A stretch of DNA of 64,000 nucleotides, taken from positions 1 to 64,000 of the forward strand of contig JALGYY010000048.1 in assembly GCA_025782575.1 (NCBI GenBank). Reading direction: 5' to 3'. Below the pieces are notes generated by a model. That model was given only the letters and a program-made list of their open reading frames with translations. It had not been told where the DNA came from and ran no database searches. The position numbers and the translations under genes were made by a program. Positions 12,035 through 23,133 of this stretch are shown here, piece after piece (positions within the stretch are counted from its first letter, which is position 1; each line of letters begins with the position of its first letter). Source of the DNA: a bacterium (GTDB lineage Bacteria; Orphanbacterota; Orphanbacteria; Orphanbacterales; Orphanbacteraceae).

Positions 12035-12087
12035 AGCATCAGGATGAGTTGGTTCTCGATTGGGGGCCGCACAGATCAGCCCGTTTC

Positions 12088-12096
12088 TGCTATAAT
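12088..12096 (+). promoter_or_regulatory. extended -10 promoter (TGCTATAAT)
   Basis: TGC followed by a perfect TATAAT on the plus strand. Transcription would begin near 12103, about 20 nt before the in-frame ATG 12124 and 75 nt before the preferred start 12178 of the BNR-repeat gene. No good -35 is present, as is usual for extended -10 promoters. Confidence 0.4.
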
Positions 12097-12177
12097 CCTC
12101 ATAGCTTCCCAGGATTTATCAGAATGAAAGCGCCCCCCTGTTCACCGCTCCCATCGGTTCGTTCAGATTGGAGATCC

Positions 12178-14766
12178 ATGAGAAATCTCGAACTAGTATG
12201 TGGCAGTCGGTTGGGGATTGGACCCCAAGGCACCCTGGTCCTTTCGCTGCTCACCGTAGTAATTGCATTCTTCCTGGCCGGAGCATGGTGCACCATCTCA
12301 GCAGATCAGCCGATCCCCGGAAATGCCGCCGAAGAATGGCTCGATCAGATGGGCCGGTATTTCGACGAGCATCCCGAACTCAAAAACGAGAGAGGGAGTG
12401 GCTGGAAGCCCTACAACCGGGCGAAATGGGCTCGCGAAAGAAGAGCCACCGAAGGGGTTGCCTCTCTCGGCGAGGCGCGCTGGCATGTGTGGGAGGAGAA
12501 AGTACGGAGATCGGGCGGGACGTCCAAGGCATCAGTGGCGAACTGGTTCTCCATGGGGCCCTCCAACATGTCCGGACGGATCTTATGCATCGATTTTGAC
12601 CCGACTGACGCGAATATTGTTTATGCAGGATCGGCGAGCGGCGGGCTCTGGAAATCGAACGACAACGGGCTTTCCTGGGCAACGACCACCGACGAGCTTC
12701 CCACCCTCGCGATCGGAGCGGTCTGCGTGCTCCCCTCGAATCCGGATATCGTGCTCATCGGAACCGGGGAGGGGACGGGAGCGGGAGCGGGGGACGATGG
12801 TGTCGGGATACTGAAATCCACCGATGCCGGGCAGACCTGGAACACCACCAGCCTGACCTTTCCGATCACGGCAGGTCACGGGTTCCATGTGATGAAAGTG
12901 ATCCCGAACACCGAGACGATACTGGCCGGGACGAATGCCGGGCTCTATCGTTCGACTGATAACGGCGACAACTGGACACAGATCAAGGCGAGCGGCCACT
13001 GGTACGATATTGCCTGGAAGCCGGATGACCCCACGAAGATCTATGCATGCAGAGGTCTCGGTCCGAGCTTTAACAACGTAAAAATTTCCACGGACGACGG
13101 GCTTACATGGTCATTGCTCGGAACAGGCCAGCCGGCGAGCAGCCTGATCGGCAAGACCAAAATCGCCGTTTCCGCGGCCGACCCGAACGTGATTTACGCC
13201 AACTACACCAACTCCTCGAATCATCAGACTCTCGGTGTCTACAAAAGCATCGATGCCGGCGCCACATGGAATCTGATGACCTCTACACCGAACATGACGA
13301 ACAGCCAGGGCTGGTACAACCTGACCCTTGCTGTCGATCCGGACGACGCGGACGTTGTCATCGCCGGAGGAGTCAGTCTCTACCGCGCGACAGACGGTGG
13401 TGTGAGCTTCTCCAAAACCGGGGAGGGATTCATCCTTGGCAACGAAACCGATGTTCACTGGGATCACCATGCCATCGTCTATGAACCTGGGAGCAGCAAC
13501 ACTGTCTGGGTGGGGAACGACGGAGGAGTCTGGCGTTCCACTGATGACGGCGCGACATGGAGTTCGAGGCGCGAGGGAATCGTCTCCTACCAGTTCTACG
13601 ATATCTGCGCGTCGGAATCGAATGACTTTGCCATGGGGGGCGCACAGGACAACGGAATACCCGGCCGGCTCGGATTCGACGACTGGTTCGTCTCCAACCT
13701 CCTTGCCGACGGTTTCGTCTGTAATATCGCCCCGGGGAACCCGGATCGAATCTATGCCGAGTGGCAGTTCGGAAACCATGTGAGAAGTATCGATGGGGGT
13801 CAGTCCTGGGTTGCTACTATGTCCGGAATCACGGGGAATGGAGCTTGGATGACACCGGTCGCTATGGATCTGAACAAACCGAAGCAGCTTTTCACCTCGA
13901 CAAGTGACGGCGTCTTTCGAACCGACAATCGAATGAACACGTGGTCTCAGGTGGGAAACCAGACAGCGATCTGGATCGATCACAGTCTCGCCGATAGTCT
14001 TACGGTCTGGACAGTGAACTCAATCGGGCCGCATGTCTCGACCGATGACGGCAACACCTGGACAGCCGCGGCCGGCTACGGTTTCTCTGTCGGGTCGGAG
14101 ACAAAGGTCGCAACTCATCCGACCGAGCCGAATACTGCGTTCATCACATTCGGCGGCTACTCTACAGCTGCACATATTGTGATGACCACTGACCTCGGTC
14201 TGACATGGACCAATGTGACAGGTGATTTTCCGGCACAACCGGTTAACACGATGGTTGTCGATCCCGATGATCCCGACGCCTGGTATATCGGCACCGATGT
14301 CGGCGTCTGGACAAGCAGCGATGGCGGCGCCACGTGGATGCCATTCGATACCGGACTCCCGAACGCTGTTATCAGCGATCTTGAGATCAGGCGGTCTGCA
14401 CGGAAACTGGTGGCGGGAACGTTCGGGCGAGGCGCATGGGAGACCGACCTTCCCGGTCTCCCGACCGGTATCGCTGCCGGCGGATCGGTCGGTTCCTCCC
14501 ACGATCTGCTGCTCGATCCTCCTTCACCTAATCCGGTTCGGGGGGAGACACTCTTGCGCTTCGCCGCCAGGCACGACGGGCCGGTATCGCTCGATGTCTA
14601 CGACATCCGAGGCCGGCGCGTAGACCACGTCGCCGACCTGAGCCGAGGGGACGGCATCATCCGTACGGCTACATGGTCAACGGAAGGGCTCCCGAGTGGG
14701 GTCTACTTCGCTCGCTTGATTGCGGGGTCCCGAACAACGGTGAGGCGCGTAGTTGTAACGAAGTAG
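12178..14766 (+). CDS. secreted BNR/VPS10-like repeat protein with type A sorting domain
   Basis: About 862 residues. Signal-anchor/signal peptide (TLVLSLLTVVIAFFLAGAWC), then many BNR/sortilin-type propeller repeats with Asp-box-like blades: YAGSASGGLWKSNDNG, LYRSTDNGDNW, VWRSTDDGATW, VWTSSDGGATW. The entry motif NWFSMGPSNMSGRILCIDFD is typical of such proteins in Bacteroidota and relatives. The last ~85 residues form a FlgD-like sorting domain (SPNPVRGETLLRF, LDVYDIRGRRV, LPSGVYFARL). Catalytic residues for a known enzyme are not evident; adhesion or glycan binding is possible. ATG 12178 has GGAG 4-5 nt upstream; ATG 12124 is the alternative and would add a long charged N-region. It is convergent with the nap operon, with only 11 bp between stops and no hairpin. 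Confidence 0.85.
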   Translation: MRNLELVCGSRLGIGPQGTLVLSLLTVVIAFFLAGAWCTISADQPIPGNAAEEWLDQMGRYFDEHPELKNERGSGWKPYNRAKWARERRATEGVASLGEARWHVWEEKVRRSGGTSKASVANWFSMGPSNMSGRILCIDFDPTDANIVYAGSASGGLWKSNDNGLSWATTTDELPTLAIGAVCVLPSNPDIVLIGTGEGTGAGAGDDGVGILKSTDAGQTWNTTSLTFPITAGHGFHVMKVIPNTETILAGTNAGLYRSTDNGDNWTQIKASGHWYDIAWKPDDPTKIYACRGLGPSFNNVKISTDDGLTWSLLGTGQPASSLIGKTKIAVSAADPNVIYANYTNSSNHQTLGVYKSIDAGATWNLMTSTPNMTNSQGWYNLTLAVDPDDADVVIAGGVSLYRATDGGVSFSKTGEGFILGNETDVHWDHHAIVYEPGSSNTVWVGNDGGVWRSTDDGATWSSRREGIVSYQFYDICASESNDFAMGGAQDNGIPGRLGFDDWFVSNLLADGFVCNIAPGNPDRIYAEWQFGNHVRSIDGGQSWVATMSGITGNGAWMTPVAMDLNKPKQLFTSTSDGVFRTDNRMNTWSQVGNQTAIWIDHSLADSLTVWTVNSIGPHVSTDDGNTWTAAAGYGFSVGSETKVATHPTEPNTAFITFGGYSTAAHIVMTTDLGLTWTNVTGDFPAQPVNTMVVDPDDPDAWYIGTDVGVWTSSDGGATWMPFDTGLPNAVISDLEIRRSARKLVAGTFGRGAWETDLPGLPTGIAAGGSVGSSHDLLLDPPSPNPVRGETLLRFAARHDGPVSLDVYDIRGRRVDHVADLSRGDGIIRTATWSTEGLPSGVYFARLIAGSRTTVRRVVVTK

Positions 14767-14777
14767 CGAACTCCAGG

Positions 14778-15350
14778 CTAGTCTTCGAGCGGCACGATTT
14801 TAAACGCGGTCGGTGTAGCTTCGCAGTGGTAAACGCAGAGACCGCAGCCGACACACTGCTCTTCATTATAGACGAGGCTGGTCAGCTTCATGGTCAAGGC
14901 TCCGGAAGACGGCGGACAGTAATGGGTACACGTATCGCAGAGAACTCCCTGGCTAATGAGACAGAGATCGCGGTTCAACTCCACCTTGGCGATCGGCGCC
15001 GGTTCATGTCCCGCGTCGAGCGTAAGGGCGCCTGAGGGGCAGGCCCGAATGCAGTCCCAGCTTTCACACCAATGACAGGCCGACTCACCCGGTTCGAGAT
15101 AAGGCGACCCTTCTCCCTGTCCGAACGCAGGTCCCATTCGCAGGATTACGTCATGGGGACATGCGCTCGCACAGTCCGTGCACTTCTCGCATCGCGCCAG
15201 AAAAGCGATCTCGTCCGGGAGAGCGCCCGGCGGCCGGATCGGACGGACTTCCTCTTCTTTCCCATCGTCCTTTCGAGGCGGGATGATTCCCTTGAATAGA
15301 TCACCGGGCCTCAGTCGAAAAAATTGTCTTCTCGATAGATCGCGAGCCAT
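14778..15350 (-). CDS. napF: NapF-like polyferredoxin
   Basis: A 190-residue cytoplasmic iron-sulfur protein with four cysteine clusters: CEKCTDCASACP (~55), CHWCESWDCIRACP (~92), CLISQGVLCDTCTHYCP (~130) and CVGCGLCVYHCE (~168). The N-terminus LSRRQFFRLRPGDLF resembles the NapF start (RRxFF without a cleavable export signal). NapF is thought to help load or reduce the NapA catalytic subunit before export. It is the last gene of the operon; ATG 15350 is one base after the stop of the upstream gene. NapF is usually ~165 residues with four clusters, so the length fits. A NapG-like export function is possible, but the short N-terminus favours NapF. Confidence 0.75.
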   Translation of the reverse strand: MARDLSRRQFFRLRPGDLFKGIIPPRKDDGKEEEVRPIRPPGALPDEIAFLARCEKCTDCASACPHDVILRMGPAFGQGEGSPYLEPGESACHWCESWDCIRACPSGALTLDAGHEPAPIAKVELNRDLCLISQGVLCDTCTHYCPPSSGALTMKLTSLVYNEEQCVGCGLCVYHCEATPTAFKIVPLED

Positions 15351-15351
15351 C

Positions 15352-16989
15352 TTACATCCCCGATCGCATTTCCATCGGCTGAGCGATGAGCCAGACGCTG
15401 AAACTGGAGTACAGGATCATTACCAGGATCAGCGGAATGAGCGCACGAAACGCCTGCTTCCGATCCGCGAATAGAACGCGTGCCACACGATCGGCGGTAA
15501 CCACACCGAACAGATGTCCGGTGACAATAAGAGAAATCTGGAGCCACCAGATCGAATTGATCGTCAGAAGGGGCATGTAGACTTTATCCGCTGTGCCGAA
15601 GAGATCCCAGCCCCAACCGAACGGATCGCTGAGCAGGGGCATAATATATTGCGCTTCCATGAAGAAGTGCATGCCATTATGGGCGAGGTGATAGAAGAGT
15701 GCGATCGGGATGACGGAGTATGCAAACGCACGAAAGATCCGCGCCGTCCGCAATTCGGATCCTGCCGTGAGCGCCCGCGATACCGCCGCCGTTCCCCAGA
15801 ACAGCATGGTGGGCAGAATGATCATGAGCGCCATCAACACAGAAAATACGATATTCGGCCCCATCCCGAAATCGGCGCGCAGTCTGTTGACTGTCTCCTG
15901 CCAGAACGGCGTCATCGTAAGCCCGTGAAAGCTAGTCAGAGCGAGCAGCGAGATGGCGAGGACAGCTTCGTCCCATCGAAAGCGAATCTTCCGGAAGAGA
16001 TCGGCGCCAAGGGGCCTGATGTTCAGTCCGATATTGTCATGGGGGCATGAGCGGATACACTCGGTGCATAGCGTGCAATAGGTGTTCTCCGTGAGTGCGC
16101 CCGGGAAGAGCGACGTGGGACAACCGACCGCAGTTTCACTCCCGTTGTAACACTCCTTTCCCTCACAACTCGTACAGATCTCTTTCGGACCGGGTCTGAT
16201 TTCGATCGGGGCGAACAGCGCATAAAGCCCCTGAATCCTGCCGACGAAGCAGAGATAACGACAGAAGGCACGCCTCTCGAACAGCAGTGCCGTGATGACC
16301 GCCATGGCGACGAAGCCGATTCCGAGAAGGGCGGTCATCGACGGCGAGCGTGTCACGTCGAGGCCGAGTTCCAGCCAGGTGAGGACGATGAAGAGAACGA
16401 GTGCGATATGGGTATTTTTCAGCGCCCGGGGCCAGCGGAATTCGAAACCGATCTTCTTGATGCGCGATCGAAGTGACAGAGAGGAGACGATCGACGAAAT
16501 CCCTTCCCAGGGGCAGACCGCGCAGAATGCCGTCCCCATGCCGAGGATGACGAAAATGAGAAGAGCCCACCACCAGGTCCATGTAAGGACCGGCGCGATA
16601 TTCACTCTCTGATTCCCGAAGAGTCCGGCCGCGATCACAAGCCCGAACAGACCGATCGAGAGCGCCTGAATCATCATGGGAAACCCGGGCCGCCTCACCA
16701 GCCAGTTCACCATACGTAGCTTTAGCAGATTGAACGTCGGGTACGACTTGACTTCTCTCTTTCTCATACGACTGAGAAGCAGGTGGCTGACAATGATGAT
16801 AGCGATAATGCCACCGGCGGCGATCGAGGGGGGGACGCCGGCCATCTGGTGACCCGCGCTCTGGGGGGGCATCGTGGTCGCACCGGTCTCGTCGGTCGCC
16901 TGGTGCATCGGACAGTTGGTCATTCCGCAGTATTTGCAGAGCTCTCCCGTCTCTTCCGAAGCGCCGCCGTTTTGCTCGTCGATCTGCAA
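15352..16989 (-). CDS. large NapH/CcoG-like membrane 4Fe-4S protein
   Basis: A 545-residue integral membrane protein with roughly ten hydrophobic segments. The centre carries the NapH/NosR/CcoG pattern: CAVCPWEG, then RRAFCRYLCFVGRIQGLY (Cx3CP-like sites facing the cytoplasm), followed by ferredoxin-type clusters CTSCEGKECYNGSETAVGCP and CTLCTECIRSCP. An extra C-terminal half has several helices and histidines (YHLAHNGMHFFMEAQY), and a short N-terminal Cys motif CKYCGMTNCPMH could bind metal. It would pass electrons from quinol toward the periplasm or from cytoplasm to membrane. It is nearly twice the length of NapH (~290). The start is TTG 16989, directly abutting the upstream TAG, with a purine-rich site GGGAAG. 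I know no standard nap gene of this shape. Confidence 0.75.
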   Translation of the reverse strand: MQIDEQNGGASEETGELCKYCGMTNCPMHQATDETGATTMPPQSAGHQMAGVPPSIAAGGIIAIIIVSHLLLSRMRKREVKSYPTFNLLKLRMVNWLVRRPGFPMMIQALSIGLFGLVIAAGLFGNQRVNIAPVLTWTWWWALLIFVILGMGTAFCAVCPWEGISSIVSSLSLRSRIKKIGFEFRWPRALKNTHIALVLFIVLTWLELGLDVTRSPSMTALLGIGFVAMAVITALLFERRAFCRYLCFVGRIQGLYALFAPIEIRPGPKEICTSCEGKECYNGSETAVGCPTSLFPGALTENTYCTLCTECIRSCPHDNIGLNIRPLGADLFRKIRFRWDEAVLAISLLALTSFHGLTMTPFWQETVNRLRADFGMGPNIVFSVLMALMIILPTMLFWGTAAVSRALTAGSELRTARIFRAFAYSVIPIALFYHLAHNGMHFFMEAQYIMPLLSDPFGWGWDLFGTADKVYMPLLTINSIWWLQISLIVTGHLFGVVTADRVARVLFADRKQAFRALIPLILVMILYSSFSVWLIAQPMEMRSGM

Positions 16990-17598
16990 CTACTTCCCTT
17001 TCCCTTTTCCGGCCCGTGCCGCCGCCCGCCTGTCCTGCTTCACCCGGGCCCGCCGTGAACCGACCGCGACCACAGCCACCAGCGCCACAAGAATGCCAGC
17101 GACCCCCTTCCCCCAGTTGGTCCTCTGGGAAGACAACCGGAACGGTATCAGAACCGTGCCGCCCGGTTCCTCGCCGAGTGTCACCCGGAGCGAGTAGCGG
17201 CCCGTATCGGGGAGTTCGTGCTGAATGGCATAGACGCATTCCTCTGCAGGGCCTTCAAAATCCTCCTCATAAAACGGGTCGTCCCGATCGAGAATCGAAA
17301 GTATGAGCGGACCGTCATAGACCTTATTCGCTCTCAAATTAAAAATGATGAGATAGAGACGAGCATTGTCAGGCTGGTAAAGGTCCTCTTTCGTAAGGCC
17401 CTGAAAATCATAAAGCACCAGAGAGTATTCGTACTCACCATCCTGGCCGAGGAATTCCTCGGTCGGCACCTGGGGGTAATTCTCGAAGTAGGAGTAATGG
17501 GGCAGTCCTTTGAAGTGATGCGCCGCTGCCGAAACGGGGATCACGAGCGAGGCGACCAAAGCCGCCAGGACGATCGATTTTCGTGCATAGCAATTCAT
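16990..17598 (-). CDS. nap-operon periplasmic protein with C-terminal anchor, unknown
   Basis: A 202-residue protein: Sec signal (IVLAALVASLVIPVSAAA), a His-rich conserved-looking stretch HHFKGLPHYSYFENYPQVP right after cleavage, an all-beta domain (YEYSLVLYDFQGL, ARLYLIIFNLRA, GRYSLRVTLGEEPGG), one C-terminal membrane helix (GVAGILVALVAVVAVG) and a basic tail. This is the layout of a single-pass periplasmic sensor or chaperone; the vicinal histidines suggest metal binding. ATG 17598 overlaps the napH stop (ATGA), so it is translationally coupled. I do not recognise a named family. Its place between two NapH-type proteins points to a role in assembling or feeding the reductase. Confidence 0.65.
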   Translation of the reverse strand: MNCYARKSIVLAALVASLVIPVSAAAHHFKGLPHYSYFENYPQVPTEEFLGQDGEYEYSLVLYDFQGLTKEDLYQPDNARLYLIIFNLRANKVYDGPLILSILDRDDPFYEEDFEGPAEECVYAIQHELPDTGRYSLRVTLGEEPGGTVLIPFRLSSQRTNWGKGVAGILVALVAVVAVGSRRARVKQDRRAAARAGKGKGK

Positions 17599-18536
17599 CG
17601 TTTCTTCATTCCGATCGAGAGGCATTGGGTCGGACAGATGGTAATGCATTCACCGCAGACTGAGCAATCCCTCGTCTCGTCATTTCGCGGATCCACATGA
17701 AGCGGGCAGACTACCGCGCAGCTGGTACAACCTTCTTTGCAGTTAGGCGCATCCCGCCGGACCGTAATCACCGGTTTACGGCCGATCGCACCGAGAAGCC
17801 TGCCCGTCGGGCAGAGCCACCTGCAGGTAAACTGCTTCCCCAGAAGGAGATCGAGGAGGGCCATGACCACCAGGCTTCCCGCGGCGGCGGAAAGTGTGCC
17901 GAAAGCGATCGACTGAAAGATCGTCTGCCCCATGGCAAAGTAGGGGAGAACAAACACCCATACGCCGTGGCCGGTCCAGACTGCGGCGACGAGCCCTCCC
18001 GCCAGAACGCCCCACGAAACCGCGCGGGGAACTTCCAGGTCAGGAAAATAGAAGAACCGTTCCAGTAATCTGCGAATCCGTGATATGACATAGAAACCGA
18101 GAGAGGCGGGGCAGATATACCCGCAGAAGACACGGCCGAACAGGAGCGCGAGACCGAGAGGCACGATCAACCCGAATGCGATCGCGGGCGTCCAGGAGTG
18201 ATCCTTGGCCAGTAGGGAGAGAGCGGCGATCGGATCGGTAAAGGGGACGCCGAACAGGCGAATGGACCAGGTCATCCCCCCCATGGTGCGGACCACTTCC
18301 TCCGGCTCGCCGAAGAGAGAGAGAAACGCTTCTGACCATTCATACGCGATTCGAGTCGCTTTACCCGAGCTGAGTTCCACAAGTCGGGGGTGATTGTATC
18401 CGAGTTTCAGGTTGGCGTATGTTGTCCAGAATGCGAGCGTGCATAGCATCAGAAGAACTGACGCCCGCGTGATCACGGAGAGAACGAGCAGATATTTTCC
18501 AAGGCGTGAGTTCGATGCGGATCCGTTTCGCACCAC
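17595..18536 (-). CDS. napH: NapH-like quinol dehydrogenase membrane subunit
   Basis: A 313-residue inner-membrane protein with about five helices. It has the NapH signatures FCGYICPASLGFYV and FTCRWLCPTGRLLG (two CxxxCP sites on the cytoplasmic face) and two C-terminal 4Fe-4S motifs, CKEGCTSCAVVCP and CSVCGECITICP. With NapG it forms an alternative quinol-oxidising route to periplasmic nitrate reductase. GTG 18536 starts two bases after the napG stop; a second GTG follows directly. Length and motif order match NapH (~290-310). Confidence 0.85.
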   Translation of the reverse strand: MVRNGSASNSRLGKYLLVLSVITRASVLLMLCTLAFWTTYANLKLGYNHPRLVELSSGKATRIAYEWSEAFLSLFGEPEEVVRTMGGMTWSIRLFGVPFTDPIAALSLLAKDHSWTPAIAFGLIVPLGLALLFGRVFCGYICPASLGFYVISRIRRLLERFFYFPDLEVPRAVSWGVLAGGLVAAVWTGHGVWVFVLPYFAMGQTIFQSIAFGTLSAAAGSLVVMALLDLLLGKQFTCRWLCPTGRLLGAIGRKPVITVRRDAPNCKEGCTSCAVVCPLHVDPRNDETRDCSVCGECITICPTQCLSIGMKKR

Positions 18537-18538
18537 GC

Positions 18539-19135
18539 TCAGGCCTCTTCGTACGAGCGGAGTTCCTCGGTGGGGATCACTCGAATCGCCTGGGGCATGT
18601 GGATACAGCCTTGTTCACATAGGCCGCATCCTACGCAGAATTCCTCATGAACGTACGGTTTCTCGAAGAGGCCGATGGTCATCGCTTCTCCCGGCAGGGG
18701 ACAGGCGCGATAACAGGCGCCGCAAGTCCGTCCGGCAAATGAGTAACAGATACTTTCCGAGACGAACGCTGTTCCCATTGCGACCGCTCTCATTCCCTCA
18801 TCGGTCGCTTCGAGTGGTTCGAGAGCTCCTGTCGGGCAGACCTGTGTACAGGCCATGCAGAGAATACATCCTCTGGCGCGAGCGGCGATTCTGGGAGTGG
18901 CGAAGTTTTCCAGACCCTTTTCGAGTCCGTAGAGGGTGATGCATTTGTTCGGACAGACGTTGGCACACTGGCCGCAACCGATACAGGCATCAAGAAAGGC
19001 TTTCTCCGGCTTCGCTCCCGGAGGCCGGAGAAATCGCCTCAGTACATTCGTGCCCGGGAGTTTCTCCAGGAAAGGAACCGCCAGAGGGATGACGGTCCCG
19101 GCCAGGAAGGCCGCGAAGAAACCCCGGCGGTTCAT
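18539..19135 (-). CDS. napG: NapG-like periplasmic ferredoxin
   Basis: A 198-residue exported iron-sulfur protein. A twin-arginine-like leader (MNRRGFFAAFLAGTVIPLAV) is followed by four 4Fe-4S motifs: CIGCGQCANVCP, CILCMACTQVCP, the variant CYSFAGRTCGACYRACP, and CVGCGLCEQGCI. NapG accepts electrons from NapH and passes them toward the catalytic complex on the periplasmic side. ATG 19135 overlaps the napA stop by four bases (ATGA), so napG translation is coupled to napA. NapG is usually ~230 residues; this one is slightly short. Confidence 0.85.
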   Translation of the reverse strand: MNRRGFFAAFLAGTVIPLAVPFLEKLPGTNVLRRFLRPPGAKPEKAFLDACIGCGQCANVCPNKCITLYGLEKGLENFATPRIAARARGCILCMACTQVCPTGALEPLEATDEGMRAVAMGTAFVSESICYSFAGRTCGACYRACPLPGEAMTIGLFEKPYVHEEFCVGCGLCEQGCIHMPQAIRVIPTEELRSYEEA

Positions 19136-21765
19136 GCCCGTTCGATCGGCTCGACGCGGCAGGCGCACTTCTTGAAGTCCGCCTGGCCGGAAACGGGATC
19201 GAACGCACGGTGAGTCGTCCCGTTGGCGAGCCATCTGTTCTTTTCAGGATCGGCCGAATCGGCGACCGAAAGATTCCACGGGCTGAACAGGAAGCCCTTC
19301 GGCACGGTGTTCCGCGCCGGCTTTACCACCGAATCGAGGCCGATCGAAACTCGCGCCTCCAGCTCGCCCCGACGTGTCACGATTCGCACCCACTGACCGT
19401 CCCGTACACCAAGCTCACGGGCATCGTCCGGATGCATTTCGCAGTACATTTCGGGAACCAGCTTCGATGTCGTGCCGGAGCGAATCGTCTTCGCCGTGTG
19501 GAAGTGCTCGTAAACGACACCGGTCGCCCACCAGAACGGGTACTTGTCCTTCGGAACCGAGCCGATCTTACTGCCGAGAAACTCCTCGTGGGGAAGCTCG
19601 GGGGTAAGCCCGGCATCCCTGGCCGCAATCAGCGTGTCGTAATGATCGATCATGTAGTAATTGGGATCGACACCGGCGGCGCTCAGCTCGTCGGTTATCT
19701 CTCTGTATTTCGAATAATCCTGATGACACATGTGAATATGCAGCTTGCCGTCGGAATGGCGGAATTCGGCGTACGGTTTATCCGGCCAGTATTCCTCCTG
19801 CGCCATGTACCGGCGCTTCGTTCCGCCCGCTTTCGCAATCGCCGCCGTCGGTGCTGGCCACTGAATGCCGCGGAGATCCCTGATCTGCTGGTAGGGAGAC
19901 TTGCCCGTCGCCTTTTCCACCTCCAGAAGACCGGTCATATCGGCATCGGTTCCCTTTGACGCGCGGAGAAAATCGCGGAAGACTTCTTCCGGATCATAAA
20001 AGCCGTTTTCTTTCCGTTTGTACGGGAAGATGCGATCCGCGTCGAGCCCGAGCTTGGTGGCGATCAGCTTCCCTTTATCGATCACCATATCCATGTCCGG
20101 CCGGCAACCCTTGACCGGGTTCGCCGTGCCGTCGCATACGTAGAACCGTCTTTCCGACTGAATATACGTGCCGCCGACCCACTCACCCCATGTCGCCGCG
20201 GGAAGAATGACGTCCGCATACAGGTTGTTCGGCGCGTCCAGATAGATCTCCTGAGCGACGGTAAAGGTCTTTGTCATCGCCGGCCGGGAGAGATTGTATG
20301 AATCGGGTAGATCGATATGAGTGGCGTAAATCATGAAGAGCGCTTTGACCTCGCCCTTCAGTGCCCGCTCCATCATCCCGATCGCCATACCTGTATTGGA
20401 AAGCTCGGCCACTTTGTCGAGCCGCTCTTTCGGTACTCCCCATGCTTCGGCCATCCTGGCGCGATGCGCCTCATCCTTGATACCGATATTAAATGGGAGA
20501 CGGCCGGTCAACCCGCCGGTCAGGCGTTCGCCCATCGCGTTCGGCTGCCCGGTCTGCGAGTGAGGGCCGCAGCCAGGCCGCCCGATGTTGCCGGTCAGCG
20601 CCATCAGGTTCACAAGACTCATGGTGTTGTGCTGGCCATGCAGATGCTGGTTGTAGCCGATACCCCAGAAGGTAAGCACACCGCCTGAACCACGCTTTCT
20701 CCCGCGGATACTCGCCGCGGCCCAGGTCTCCGCGATCTTGTAGATCTCCGACGCGGGGATCATCGTCCGGCTCTCTATCTCTCTCGGATTGTAACCACTC
20801 TTGACCTCTTCGACGTAGTTCTCCCAGCCGGATGTGTGCTTCTTCAGGAAGTCCCACGCCACAGCGTCGTCATGCTTCTCCATGATCGCGTAGGCGATCG
20901 CATTTTGAATCGAAATGTCGCCGTTGATCGTCGAAAAGTGTGTGCTGTTATCGGGATGGATCTCCTCGAGCCCCATTACCGTTCCGGTTCTACGGGGATC
21001 GACGACCAGGGTCGGGATGTTCTTCTTTGCTTTATGATCGGCCACCCGCCAGTAAAGAATCGGATGGGAGCCCCGGGCATTGTGTCCCCAGAACGTGATC
21101 ATGTCGGAGAGTTCGATGTCGTCATAACAGGTGGGCGGCGTATCGGATCCGAGTGACTTGAAGTAGCCGGTCACAGCCGAGGTCATACACATCCGCGCAT
21201 TCGCCTCGATCGTGTTCGAGCCGAGCACACCCTTCATGAATATATTTTCGAGCCACTGTCCTTCCACGGGGAGCTGTCCGGAACCGTAAAGGCCGACAGC
21301 GTTGCCCCCTTCGGCCTTGACGATCTCCGCGACCTTCTCCGACACGAGTTCCTCCGCCTCATCCCACGACGCCTCGCGGAAGTGCTTCGGATCGAAAGAA
21401 TTCTTCGTGGCGGAGACATGACCACGAAGCGGATCGGACATGTCCTTCCGGATGAGCGGCTTGGTGAGGCGATTCACATAGATCGCTTCGGCGGAGGTCA
21501 GTCCCTTGATGCACTGGAGCCCCTTGTTGGTCGGGTGATCCTTATCGGGAATGACATTGGTGATCCGGCCGTTCTTCGTCTGAATAATCGTCCCGCAACC
21601 GACACCGCAATAGGGACATGCCGCGAGAAGATCGGTATCGGCCTTGTTCGATTCCAATACGATCGATCCCGGATCGGGTACCGACCACCCCTTCTTCGGA
21701 TTGACTCCGGCAGCGGTCACTGCAGCTGTCGCTGCCGCATACTTGATAAAGGACCGTCGTTTCAT
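19132..21765 (-). CDS. napA: periplasmic nitrate reductase catalytic subunit NapA, divergent
   Basis: An 877-residue Mo-bis-MGD oxidoreductase. It has a twin-arginine leader (MKRRSFIKYAAATAAVTAAG), a 4Fe-4S site CPYCGVGC with the distal Cys84 (LQCIKG), and a Mo-ligand Cys192 in NARMCMTSAV, which matches the NapA motif (CMxSAV) rather than formate dehydrogenase (CHAPS/U). Further family segments are ARGSHPILYWR, FWGIGYNQHLHGQHNT and TGNIGRPGCGPHSQTGQPN. It reduces nitrate to nitrite in the periplasm. It is longer than E. coli NapA (828) and the cluster motif CPYCGVGC is not the typical CRFCGTGC, so substrate should be treated as probable. It follows the cytochrome gene by 15 bp with GGAAGGG as ribosome site, and no napD chaperone gene is near. 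Confidence 0.88.
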   Translation of the reverse strand: MKRRSFIKYAAATAAVTAAGVNPKKGWSVPDPGSIVLESNKADTDLLAACPYCGVGCGTIIQTKNGRITNVIPDKDHPTNKGLQCIKGLTSAEAIYVNRLTKPLIRKDMSDPLRGHVSATKNSFDPKHFREASWDEAEELVSEKVAEIVKAEGGNAVGLYGSGQLPVEGQWLENIFMKGVLGSNTIEANARMCMTSAVTGYFKSLGSDTPPTCYDDIELSDMITFWGHNARGSHPILYWRVADHKAKKNIPTLVVDPRRTGTVMGLEEIHPDNSTHFSTINGDISIQNAIAYAIMEKHDDAVAWDFLKKHTSGWENYVEEVKSGYNPREIESRTMIPASEIYKIAETWAAASIRGRKRGSGGVLTFWGIGYNQHLHGQHNTMSLVNLMALTGNIGRPGCGPHSQTGQPNAMGERLTGGLTGRLPFNIGIKDEAHRARMAEAWGVPKERLDKVAELSNTGMAIGMMERALKGEVKALFMIYATHIDLPDSYNLSRPAMTKTFTVAQEIYLDAPNNLYADVILPAATWGEWVGGTYIQSERRFYVCDGTANPVKGCRPDMDMVIDKGKLIATKLGLDADRIFPYKRKENGFYDPEEVFRDFLRASKGTDADMTGLLEVEKATGKSPYQQIRDLRGIQWPAPTAAIAKAGGTKRRYMAQEEYWPDKPYAEFRHSDGKLHIHMCHQDYSKYREITDELSAAGVDPNYYMIDHYDTLIAARDAGLTPELPHEEFLGSKIGSVPKDKYPFWWATGVVYEHFHTAKTIRSGTTSKLVPEMYCEMHPDDARELGVRDGQWVRIVTRRGELEARVSIGLDSVVKPARNTVPKGFLFSPWNLSVADSADPEKNRWLANGTTHRAFDPVSGQADFKKCACRVEPIERA

Positions 21766-21780
21766 TCTTGTCCCTTCCTC

Positions 21781-23133
21781 TTAGATCGATGTGCTTTGCA
21801 AAGATCGCAGATAGACGATGATATCGTTTACTTCCTGTTCTTCAAGATTAGCCAGGCCGCGAGATCCGGTCATCGGCATCATGGCCGTGCCGATTCTTCC
21901 CTGGTGAATGGTCTGATAAATGTAGTCGTCGGTCGCCACACTCAGGAAACCGGTCAACCCGATTCCCGGGCCTGACCCGCCGGCGCTGTAGCCCTCTCCT
22001 GCCGGACCGTGGCATGAGGCACAGAATCTCGTAAAGAGCGCCTTGCCGTTCGCGGTGTTCCCCTCGCAGACTCGATCCGGATTGGCAACGATATCGACCG
22101 GATTGGCGATTTCGAGGTCGCGGAGATAAAGGAGAATACTGCTGAGAGGTGAACCGGCAAGGTCGGGTCGCGCCACCATTGCCGTCCCCGGCCGCCCTCC
22201 GGCAACCGTGGCCCTTATGAAATTATCCGAAGCGATCGCCAGAAAATCTCGATTCCGGATGCTCGGTGCGAGACCGGGCAGACCGACACCACCGATCTGA
22301 TGGCAACTGGCGCAGTTGGCGCGGAAGAGTTTTTCGCCGTCTGCCGGGTTCGGCTCTTTTGCCGCCCGAACCGGTGCGTTCTCAGCGAAATTAAGGGCTC
22401 TCTCCGAGTTCGCCCGTAAATGAGCGATTATGTCCTTGCCGTCCTGTTCTGTCAGATTTGCGAGGCCCGCGGCGCCGATGAACGGCCGCATGGGAGTGCC
22501 GATTCTCCCGCGGCGGAGCGTTTGCATGATGTAGTCGTCGCTGGCGGCCCGCAGAAAACTGGGAAGGCCGATCCCCGGGCCTGAACCGCCCGAACTGTAG
22601 CCCTCACCGTCTCTCCCGTGGCAGGAGGCGCAAAACGTTCCGAAGAGTTCCTCTCCATTATAGTGGTCACCGGCAAACTCCGCTTCCCAGTCGACCGATA
22701 CCTGAACCGGATTCGCCACCTCAAGCGAGCGAAGATAAGCGATGATATGGGTAAGATCGCCGTCCGACAGATCGGGCCGGGCGACCATCGCCGTTCCGTC
22801 CCGCCCACGGTTCACGGTCTTCTTGATGAAATGATCGGAAGCGAGTGCTAGAAAATCACGATTACGAATACTGGGAGCGAGGCCCACCATCCCGCCGCCG
22901 TCTATCTGATGACATGAGGCGCAGTTGGTGGTAAATAGCGCGAGCCCGGCTCCCGGATCAGGTGTACCGGTAAACGGCTTGGAGGCGGCGCCGTCGAATA
23001 CGGAATGGCGGTTCTTCAGTCCGACGACATCCCGATAGTGCTCATTGGCACTACTTATTGAGATCACGAGCGCGACGACGGTGATCACAACTGCAGCGAT
23101 TCCGCCTATCACCGTTGAGGTGTAGTCCCTGAT
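21781..23133 (-). CDS. membrane-anchored four-domain cytochrome c
   Basis: About 450 residues: one N-terminal membrane helix (IGGIAAVVITVVALVISI), then four class I cytochrome c domains, each with CASCH(Q/G). Domains 1/3 (CASCHQIGG... GLAPSIRNRDFLA..SD) and 2/4 (CASCHG..GEGYS.GGSGPGIGL) are clearly alike, so the protein arose by doubling a two-domain unit. Met-containing loops (GTAMVARPDL, GTPMRPF, GTAMMPM) supply distal ligands. As first gene of the nap operon it is the best candidate electron donor for NapA in place of NapB/NapC. The strongest ribosome site (AAGGAGG) lies 5 nt before an in-frame ATC at 23133-23131; the first conventional start, GTG 23112, is inside the operon leader with no ribosome site and would clip the N-terminus MRDYTST-like segment. 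Confidence 0.85.
   Translation of the reverse strand: MRDYTSTVIGGIAAVVITVVALVISISSANEHYRDVVGLKNRHSVFDGAASKPFTGTPDPGAGLALFTTNCASCHQIDGGGMVGLAPSIRNRDFLALASDHFIKKTVNRGRDGTAMVARPDLSDGDLTHIIAYLRSLEVANPVQVSVDWEAEFAGDHYNGEELFGTFCASCHGRDGEGYSSGGSGPGIGLPSFLRAASDDYIMQTLRRGRIGTPMRPFIGAAGLANLTEQDGKDIIAHLRANSERALNFAENAPVRAAKEPNPADGEKLFRANCASCHQIGGVGLPGLAPSIRNRDFLAIASDNFIRATVAGGRPGTAMVARPDLAGSPLSSILLYLRDLEIANPVDIVANPDRVCEGNTANGKALFTRFCASCHGPAGEGYSAGGSGPGIGLTGFLSVATDDYIYQTIHQGRIGTAMMPMTGSRGLANLEEQEVNDIIVYLRSLQSTSI

What the first reader, a model, noticed from the sequence alone, without database searches (positions are those of the whole stretch)
14778..23133. Seven-gene nap operon lacking napB, napC and napD, led by a four-domain cytochrome c
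Seen: cytochrome c (four CASCH), NapA, NapG, NapH, an exported unknown, a 545-residue NapH/CcoG-like protein and NapF, with overlaps or gaps of 0-15 bp. Known: Nap systems use NapC/NapB or NapGH to bring electrons to NapA, and NapD as chaperone. Inference: the tandem monoheme cytochrome replaces NapB, and the second, large NapH-like protein plus the His-rich anchored protein form an uncommon electron-entry or assembly module. NapA itself is divergent (877 residues, CPYCGVGC cluster).
Basis: partly seen in the sequence, partly recalled or inferred. Interest (0 to 1): 0.68.

Follow-up and report, generated by a model that had tools for sequence, protein, structure and literature searches.

The report
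Mobile third-lineage nitrate-reductase-like respiratory operon
A set of seven linked genes builds a membrane-fed molybdenum enzyme that is a distant cousin of known nitrate reductases; nearly the same set, with two protein families that nothing here identifies, has passed between at least five bacterial phyla, so it is probably an unnamed way of respiring, most likely on nitrate.

Summary
In detail: seven tightly packed minus-strand genes (14778-23133) encode a four-heme-domain cytochrome c, a Tat-exported NapA-like enzyme, NapG-, NapH- and NapF-like ferredoxins and two proteins without a family (202 and 545 aa), with no NapB, NapC or NapD. The enzyme is not a NapA that lost partners. In trees it forms its own clade on a very long stem, outside canonical NapA (rejected by AU test), outside formate dehydrogenase, and beside NapA and Nas. 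The same genome also carries a canonical nap cluster with NapD elsewhere. The operon recurs in Eisenbacteria, Verrucomicrobiota, Planctomycetota, Latescibacterota, Omnitrophota and contigs titled Cloacimonadota. The enzyme is 76-81% identical between phyla whose RpoB is only 48-61% identical, so it has moved horizontally. NapH and the 202-aa protein are fused in many genomes, and NapH, the 202-aa and the 545-aa protein are one 1065-aa ORF in one, which points to a single membrane complex. A sister subclade adds Rieske, cytochrome b and a roughly 10-heme cytochrome. Best reading: a quinol-fed periplasmic molybdenum reductase for a high-potential oxyanion, nitrate being most likely. The substrate is not shown. 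New variant of a known kind.

The parts
21781..23133 (-). Membrane-anchored cytochrome c with four class-I monoheme domains (4 x CASCH); probable ATC start at 23133 (ORF tool starts at GTG 23112)
   Evidence: Cytochrom_C x4; one N-terminal TM; conserved SD-ATC; GTxM candidate ligands
19132..21765 (-). Catalytic subunit: Tat-exported bis-MGD oxidoreductase, third lineage of the Nap/Nas group (877 aa)
   Evidence: NapA model 354 bits vs cut-off 904; Cys-Met at Mo, Arg, Lys kept
18539..19135 (-). NapG-like membrane-anchored 4Fe-4S ferredoxin
   Evidence: (NapG 122.9 bits); ATGA overlap with the catalytic gene
17595..18536 (-). NapH-like membrane ferredoxin, GTG start
   Evidence: (NapH 104 bits); fused to the next gene in other genomes
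16990..17598 (-). 202-aa exported protein: signal/TM, mature N-terminus HHFKGLPHY..., Ig-like sandwich, C-terminal TM, basic tail (HHF)
   Evidence: no Pfam family
15352..16989 (-). 545-aa polytopic Fe-S protein (P545): Cys/Met/His-rich N-terminus, NapH/CcoG-like Fe-S core, C-terminal His-rich five-helix domain; TTG start
   Evidence: (NapH 39.6 bits)
14778..15350 (-). NapF/NapG-like 4Fe-4S ferredoxin
   Evidence: (NapG 85, NapF 62.5 bits)

Best explanation
This is a horizontally mobile respiratory operon. Its catalytic subunit is a Tat-exported, bis-MGD molybdenum (or tungsten) enzyme of a third lineage next to NapA and Nas. Quinol is oxidised by a membrane iron-sulfur complex in which NapH, the 202-aa His-motif protein and the 545-aa protein act as one unit with NapG. 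Electrons reach the enzyme directly from NapG or through the tandem class-I cytochrome c, which takes NapB's place. The reaction is most likely reduction of a high-potential oxyanion, nitrate first. Shown: gene content, conservation, fusions, separate phylogeny, Mo-site residues, horizontal spread. Inferred: topology, electron path, direction, substrate, and a metal-binding role for the His/Cys/Met termini.
For: Operon conserved in order across several phyla. NapH-HHF fusion in seven loci of the window's subclade and NapH-HHF-P545 as one 1065-aa ORF in L052. Own clade 100/100 on a stem of 1.6-1.7 substitutions/site; nesting in canonical NapA rejected. Mo-ligand Cys followed by Met, active-site Arg and Fe-S-to-MGD Lys positions of Nap/Nas kept; His-type formate dehydrogenase signature absent. 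Sister subclade adds Rieske, cytochrome b and a cytochrome with about 10 hemes, which fits quinol to cytochrome c to reductase. Precedents: bc-dependent Nap in Campylobacter (PMC6195509) and a Rieske/cytochrome b in the Caldithrix nap cluster lacking NapB and NapC (PMC5317091). MoeA, MoaA or MOSC genes next to it. RIC/ScdA (NO-damage repair) next to it in two loci and YgbA_NO in one. RpoB 48-61% vs catalytic subunit 76-81% between phyla.
Against: No substrate evidence. The acidic residue of the NapA DEP motif is Thr or Ala here, though Nas enzymes that reduce nitrate also lack it. The window genome and at least five other carriers already have a canonical NapA, so a second nitrate reductase is not obviously needed. 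True NrfA was found in only 3 of 28 carriers and YgbA_NO in 1 of 28. Direction of electron flow is assumed.
Confidence: 0.6

Rival explanations
1. Same architecture, but the substrate is not nitrate: another high-potential oxyanion or N-oxide (for example chlorate, selenate, iodate), or a substrate oxidised rather than reduced.
For: Very long stem followed by strong conservation suggests a change of function. Canonical NapA coexists in the same genome. DEP changed to DTP/DAP next to the Mo site.
Against: Closest characterised enzymes (NapA, Nas) all reduce nitrate; Mo-site Cys-Met and Arg retained; NO-repair genes adjacent in two loci.
Confidence: 0.3
2. A divergent but ordinary Nap operon that lost NapB, NapC and NapD.
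For: NapG, NapH and NapF homologues; NapA is the best NCBIfam model. NapB-less Nap is known in D. desulfuricans and Caldithrix.
Against: Nesting in canonical NapA rejected, p-AU 0.009. NapA models score 326-354 bits against cut-offs of 904-931. Canonical NapA with NapD is present separately in the genome.
Confidence: 0.06
3. The 202-aa and 545-aa proteins are mainly copper/metal-handling assembly factors (CcoG/FixH/CtaG-like), not part of the electron path. This concerns two subunits and can hold together with either substrate reading.
For: Invariant His-His after the signal site. CxxCGMxxCPMH or His/Met-rich N-termini, YHS domains in the sister subclade. Distant homologues fused to Caa3_CtaG in bc/cox clusters. 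CcoG-like Fe-S core.
Against: Fusion to NapH and strict co-occurrence with a Mo enzyme that needs no copper; invariant Fe-S cysteines fit electron transfer equally. Foldseek gave no significant match for either.
Confidence: 0.3

Closest known systems
Periplasmic nitrate reductase Nap (NapA with NapGH; NapB-less napCMADGH type of D. desulfuricans, Caldithrix abyssi)
   Same: Tat-exported bis-MGD enzyme with N-terminal 4Fe-4S and Cys ligand; NapG, NapH, NapF-type ferredoxins; a c-type cytochrome instead of NapB
   Different: Catalytic subunit outside the NapA clade, 877 aa with Nas-like motifs; tandem class-I cytochrome rather than tetraheme NapM; no NapD; two extra families; often a second NapGH pair
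Assimilatory nitrate reductase NasA/NasC/NarB
   Same: CPYCGVGC, GSDxxP and TGQPNAMG-R spacing; Cys-Met at Mo
   Different: Exported, membrane-fed; no NirBD or flavin partner; separate clade
CcoG/FixG and CcoH/FixH (cbb3 oxidase assembly pair)
   Same: NapH-like polytopic Fe-S protein paired with a small exported Ig-like anchored protein
   Different: 545-aa protein has a further His-rich five-helix domain and metal-motif N-terminus; FixH match of the 202-aa protein is insignificant (E 0.046)
Wolinella-type Nos electron supply (NosG, NosH, NosC1, NosC2)
   Same: NapGH homologues plus monoheme cytochromes c feeding a periplasmic reductase (from my own knowledge, not tested)
   Different: Different terminal enzyme; the extra families were not compared

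Membership tests
NapA (catalytic subunit) | Falls inside the canonical NapA clade | tested here: not met
   separate clade 100/100; nesting rejected p-AU 0.009
NapA (catalytic subunit) | NCBIfam NapA equivalog cut-off | tested here: not met
   354 and 326 bits vs 904 and 931
NapA (catalytic subunit) | Tat signal, N-terminal 4Fe-4S, Cys ligand to Mo | tested here: met
NapA (catalytic subunit) | CR(F/Y)CGTGC, DEP and TGQPxACGxxR motifs shared by the canonical NapA sequences aligned | tested here: not met
   CPYCGVGC, DTP, TGQPNAMGE-R
NapA (catalytic subunit) | Nitrate reductase activity | not testable with these tools
   No assay possible
Nap operon | NapD chaperone gene in the cluster | tested here: not met
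   NapD absent from 21 of 26 carrier genomes; in the window genome it lies at another NapA
Nap operon | NapB | tested here: not met
   absent in 24 of 26 carriers; in G002 and G016 the match lies beside another canonical-type NapA
Nap operon | NapC-type tetraheme quinol dehydrogenase | not tested
   PF03264 not searched; no such ORF read in the operon
Nap operon | NapGH quinol dehydrogenase pair | tested here: inconclusive
   NapG and NapH are the best models but below cut-off (122.9/269 and 104/213 bits)
Nas assimilatory nitrate reductase | Groups with Nas in a tree | tested here: inconclusive
   Not in the best tree; X + Nas not rejected, p-AU 0.088
Nas assimilatory nitrate reductase | Cytoplasmic, with NirBD or NasB-type partners | tested here: not met
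   Tat signal; no such genes in or beside the window operon
Formate dehydrogenase alpha | Groups with Fdh; Sec/Cys-His at the Mo site | tested here: not met
   outside at 100/97; Cys-Met instead
CcoG | NCBIfam CcoG model | tested here: not met
   no CcoG hit for the 545-aa protein; only weak NapH hits

The most novel reading that the evidence does not exclude
An unnamed respiratory complex for a substrate other than nitrate: a neofunctionalised Nap/Nas-group enzyme fed by a new membrane module (NapH, His-motif protein, 545-aa protein) whose exported protein begins with a metal-binding His-His N-terminus, spread horizontally across phyla of mostly uncultured bacteria.
Probability: 0.3. Interest if true: 0.82.

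Novelty: new variant of a known kind. Interest (0 to 1): 0.62.

Why it matters
Annotation and metagenomic surveys would probably count these genes as napA or as a generic molybdopterin oxidoreductase, although they belong to neither NapA nor Nas. The system is widespread among MAGs, some with record titles pointing to oxygen-deficient waters, so a wrong label could distort nitrogen-cycle inventories. It also bears on how NapA and Nas diverged, supplies two protein families unmatched in the databases searched, and gives a fusion-based hypothesis for how a quinol-oxidising Fe-S complex is put together.

Tried and rejected
NapB and NapD lost to an assembly gap: rejected, the pattern holds in most carriers. 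Formate dehydrogenase identity: rejected. Selenocysteine in some Planctomycetota copies flagged '1 TGA': annotated open frames such as L185 (912 aa) and L190 (928 aa) are full length without it, so the TGA is probably the terminal stop; not examined base by base. Foldseek of the 202-aa model (pLDDT 76) and the 545-aa model (pLDDT 79): no hit at E <= 0.001; a weak PmoD hit (6cpd, E 0.027) is not used as evidence. PDB profile searches for both proteins: nothing but short Fe-S or insignificant matches. NO-responsive YgbA_NO as a general partner: only 1 of 28 genomes. NrfA as a general partner: 3 of 28 clear hits. Literature searches for a name of this gene order returned no match. A first alignment of the 545-aa protein failed on wrong start coordinates and was redone.
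Full report
What is in the window. On the minus strand between 23133 and 14778 lie seven genes joined by 4-bp overlaps to a 15-bp gap: a cytochrome c, a NapA-like enzyme, NapG, NapH, a 202-aa exported protein (here HHF), a 545-aa polytopic Fe-S protein (here P545) and a NapF/NapG-like ferredoxin. Pfam finds four cytochrome c domains, the three molybdopterin-enzyme domains with a Tat signal, and 4Fe-4S domains; HHF has no family and P545 only a marginal Fer4_5 match. NCBIfam gives NapA as best model for the enzyme, but at 354 bits against a cut-off of 904, with formate dehydrogenase at 318 and Nas models at 281 and 248.

Same genome, other nap genes. No NapB occurs in the genome. The single NapD match sits on contig C11 in a canonical cluster: a four-heme cytochrome, a 749-aa NapA, NapD, NapG and NapH. 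A third NapA-type gene lies on C7 beside eight-heme and four-heme cytochromes. The window operon is thus an additional system, not this organism's reduced nap operon.

Recurrence. Searching with the 545-aa protein found the operon in relatives that GenBank records title Candidatus Eisenbacteria, and in Verrucomicrobia/Opitutales, Planctomycetota, Latescibacterota, Gemmatimonadetes, Hydrogenedentota, Omnitrophica, one Alphaproteobacteria-titled bin and contigs titled Cloacimonadota. Bin titles can be wrong: the Latescibacterota- and Gemmatimonadetes-titled copies are nearly identical, and the Hydrogenedentota and Alphaproteobacteria contigs are short and show only part of the operon. Where contigs are long enough the order is cytochrome, NapA-like, NapG, [NapG2, NapH2], NapH, HHF, P545, usually with NapF. 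The second NapG/NapH pair occurs in the window's closest relatives and several Verrucomicrobia but not in the window. In the two Cloacimonadota-titled genomes NapF is divergently oriented upstream, and in L034 the cytochrome and enzyme genes are inverted. Surveys found P545 matches in 11 of 388 Verrucomicrobiota genomes, but several are distant homologues outside such an operon. The enzyme was found in 13 of 392 Planctomycetota genomes and in 5 of 40 genomes of the phylum of G022. The distribution is sporadic.

Horizontal transfer. Between phyla the catalytic subunit is on average 76-81% identical while RpoB of the same genomes is 48-61% identical; within the three Eisenbacteria both are 84%. 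This is strong evidence for transfer between phyla.

Phylogeny. A tree of 54 sequences (IQ-TREE, LG+C20) puts the window enzyme and 19 operon relatives in one clade (100/100) on a stem of 1.7 substitutions/site. Canonical NapA (Salmonella, Azospirillum, D. desulfuricans structure 2nap, and the other two copies of this genome) forms a separate clade (100/99), and formate dehydrogenases are outside (100/97). NapA is the nearest clade but weakly supported (91/88). AU tests reject nesting inside NapA (p 0.009) and do not reject a grouping with Nas (p 0.088). Adding a second subclade from Planctomycetota and others keeps the picture with a stem of 1.6. Wells et al. 2023 (PMC10100899) also report that NasC/NasA and NapA are hard to separate once MAG sequences are added; they do not describe this operon in the passages I read.

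Active site. The clade keeps the Cys-Met pair at the molybdenum, the Lys after the Fe-S cluster and the active-site Arg. It has CPYCGVGC and the TGQPNAMG-R spacing seen in Nas, and DTP or DAP where canonical NapA has DEP. Nas enzymes also lack that acidic residue, so nitrate is not excluded. Assignment of these residues to roles rests on my knowledge of the D. desulfuricans structure.

The membrane module. In L036, L042 and L044-L048 NapH and HHF are one open frame of about 505-519 aa, and in L052 NapH, HHF and P545 are one 1065-aa frame without internal stops. In L123 and several other members of the second subclade the NapH-type protein and HHF are also fused. Fusion of neighbours is good evidence that the three work as one complex. 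Hydropathy gives HHF two membrane segments flanking its soluble domain, and AlphaFold2 predicts an Ig-like sandwich between them (pLDDT 76). In all 25 aligned HHF proteins the invariant His-His directly follows a small residue (A, G or C) that ends the signal-like segment, and in the second subclade Ala precedes it, so the mature protein probably begins His-His. P545 has invariant Fe-S cysteines, His residues in a five-helix C-terminal region, and an N-terminus rich in Cys, Met or His; in the second subclade YHS-type segments stand there. Distant P545 homologues are fused to Caa3_CtaG in bc/cox clusters. A metal-related role is therefore plausible, but it is inference.

Electron path. Each heme domain of the cytochrome has a GTxM candidate Met ligand, typical of high-potential class-I cytochromes. 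The sister subclade carries, upstream of a cytochrome with about 10 CxxCH motifs, a Rieske protein, cytochrome b and an NAD(P)/Fe-S oxidoreductase. In Campylobacter the Nap enzyme depends on the Qcr complex (PMC6195509), and Caldithrix has a Rieske/cytochrome b in a nap cluster lacking NapB and NapC (PMC5317091). This favours quinol to cytochrome c to enzyme, that is, reduction of a high-potential acceptor.

Context. MOSC genes lie beside the operon in several Verrucomicrobia (two were checked with Pfam, the rest by clustering), MoaA in two loci and MoeA in one. RIC/ScdA lies beside it in two loci and YgbA_NO in one. YgbA_NO is absent from the other carriers tested, and NrfA is clear in only three. 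The context therefore supports a molybdenum enzyme and gives only a hint of nitrogen-oxide chemistry.

Verdict. A real, conserved, horizontally mobile respiratory module, filed as a new variant of the Nap/Nas kind: it works like a NapGH-fed periplasmic reductase, but it fails the phylogenetic and motif tests for NapA. The substrate is the open question.

Noticed in passing
window 23133 (- strand); L032 2294; L060 2364 (-); L033 about 3141: The cytochrome gene appears to start with ATC placed 5 nt after a strong Shine-Dalgarno in all four Eisenbacteria examined, with no suitable ATG/GTG/TTG at that position; a conserved non-standard start codon could mean regulated translation.
   Followed up: partly
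L057 8553-13223 (own genome contig C11): Canonical monomeric-type nap cluster: four-heme cytochrome, 749-aa NapA, NapD, NapG, NapH, in the same genome as the window operon.
   Followed up: yes
L058 7399-12000 (own genome contig C7): Third NapA-type gene, flanked by an eight-heme and a four-heme cytochrome; it falls in the canonical NapA clade.
   Followed up: partly
L125 8314-10602; L127 7830-10148: Distant homologues of the 545-aa protein fused behind a Caa3_CtaG domain in cytochrome bc/oxidase gene clusters of Verrucomicrobiota.
   Followed up: partly
L121 6563-8365; L122 5649-7571: Closer homologues (43%) of the 545-aa protein with no NapA-like gene found in the stretch read; function unknown.
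   Followed up: no
L120 2026-3101; L043 10547-11290: RIC/ScdA hemerythrin-like NO-damage repair genes beside the operon in two Verrucomicrobia, with YgbA_NO in one.
   Followed up: partly
window 12049-14766: 905-aa protein with beta-propeller-like repeats and a FlgD-like C-terminal sorting region, just downstream of the operon on the other strand.
   Followed up: no
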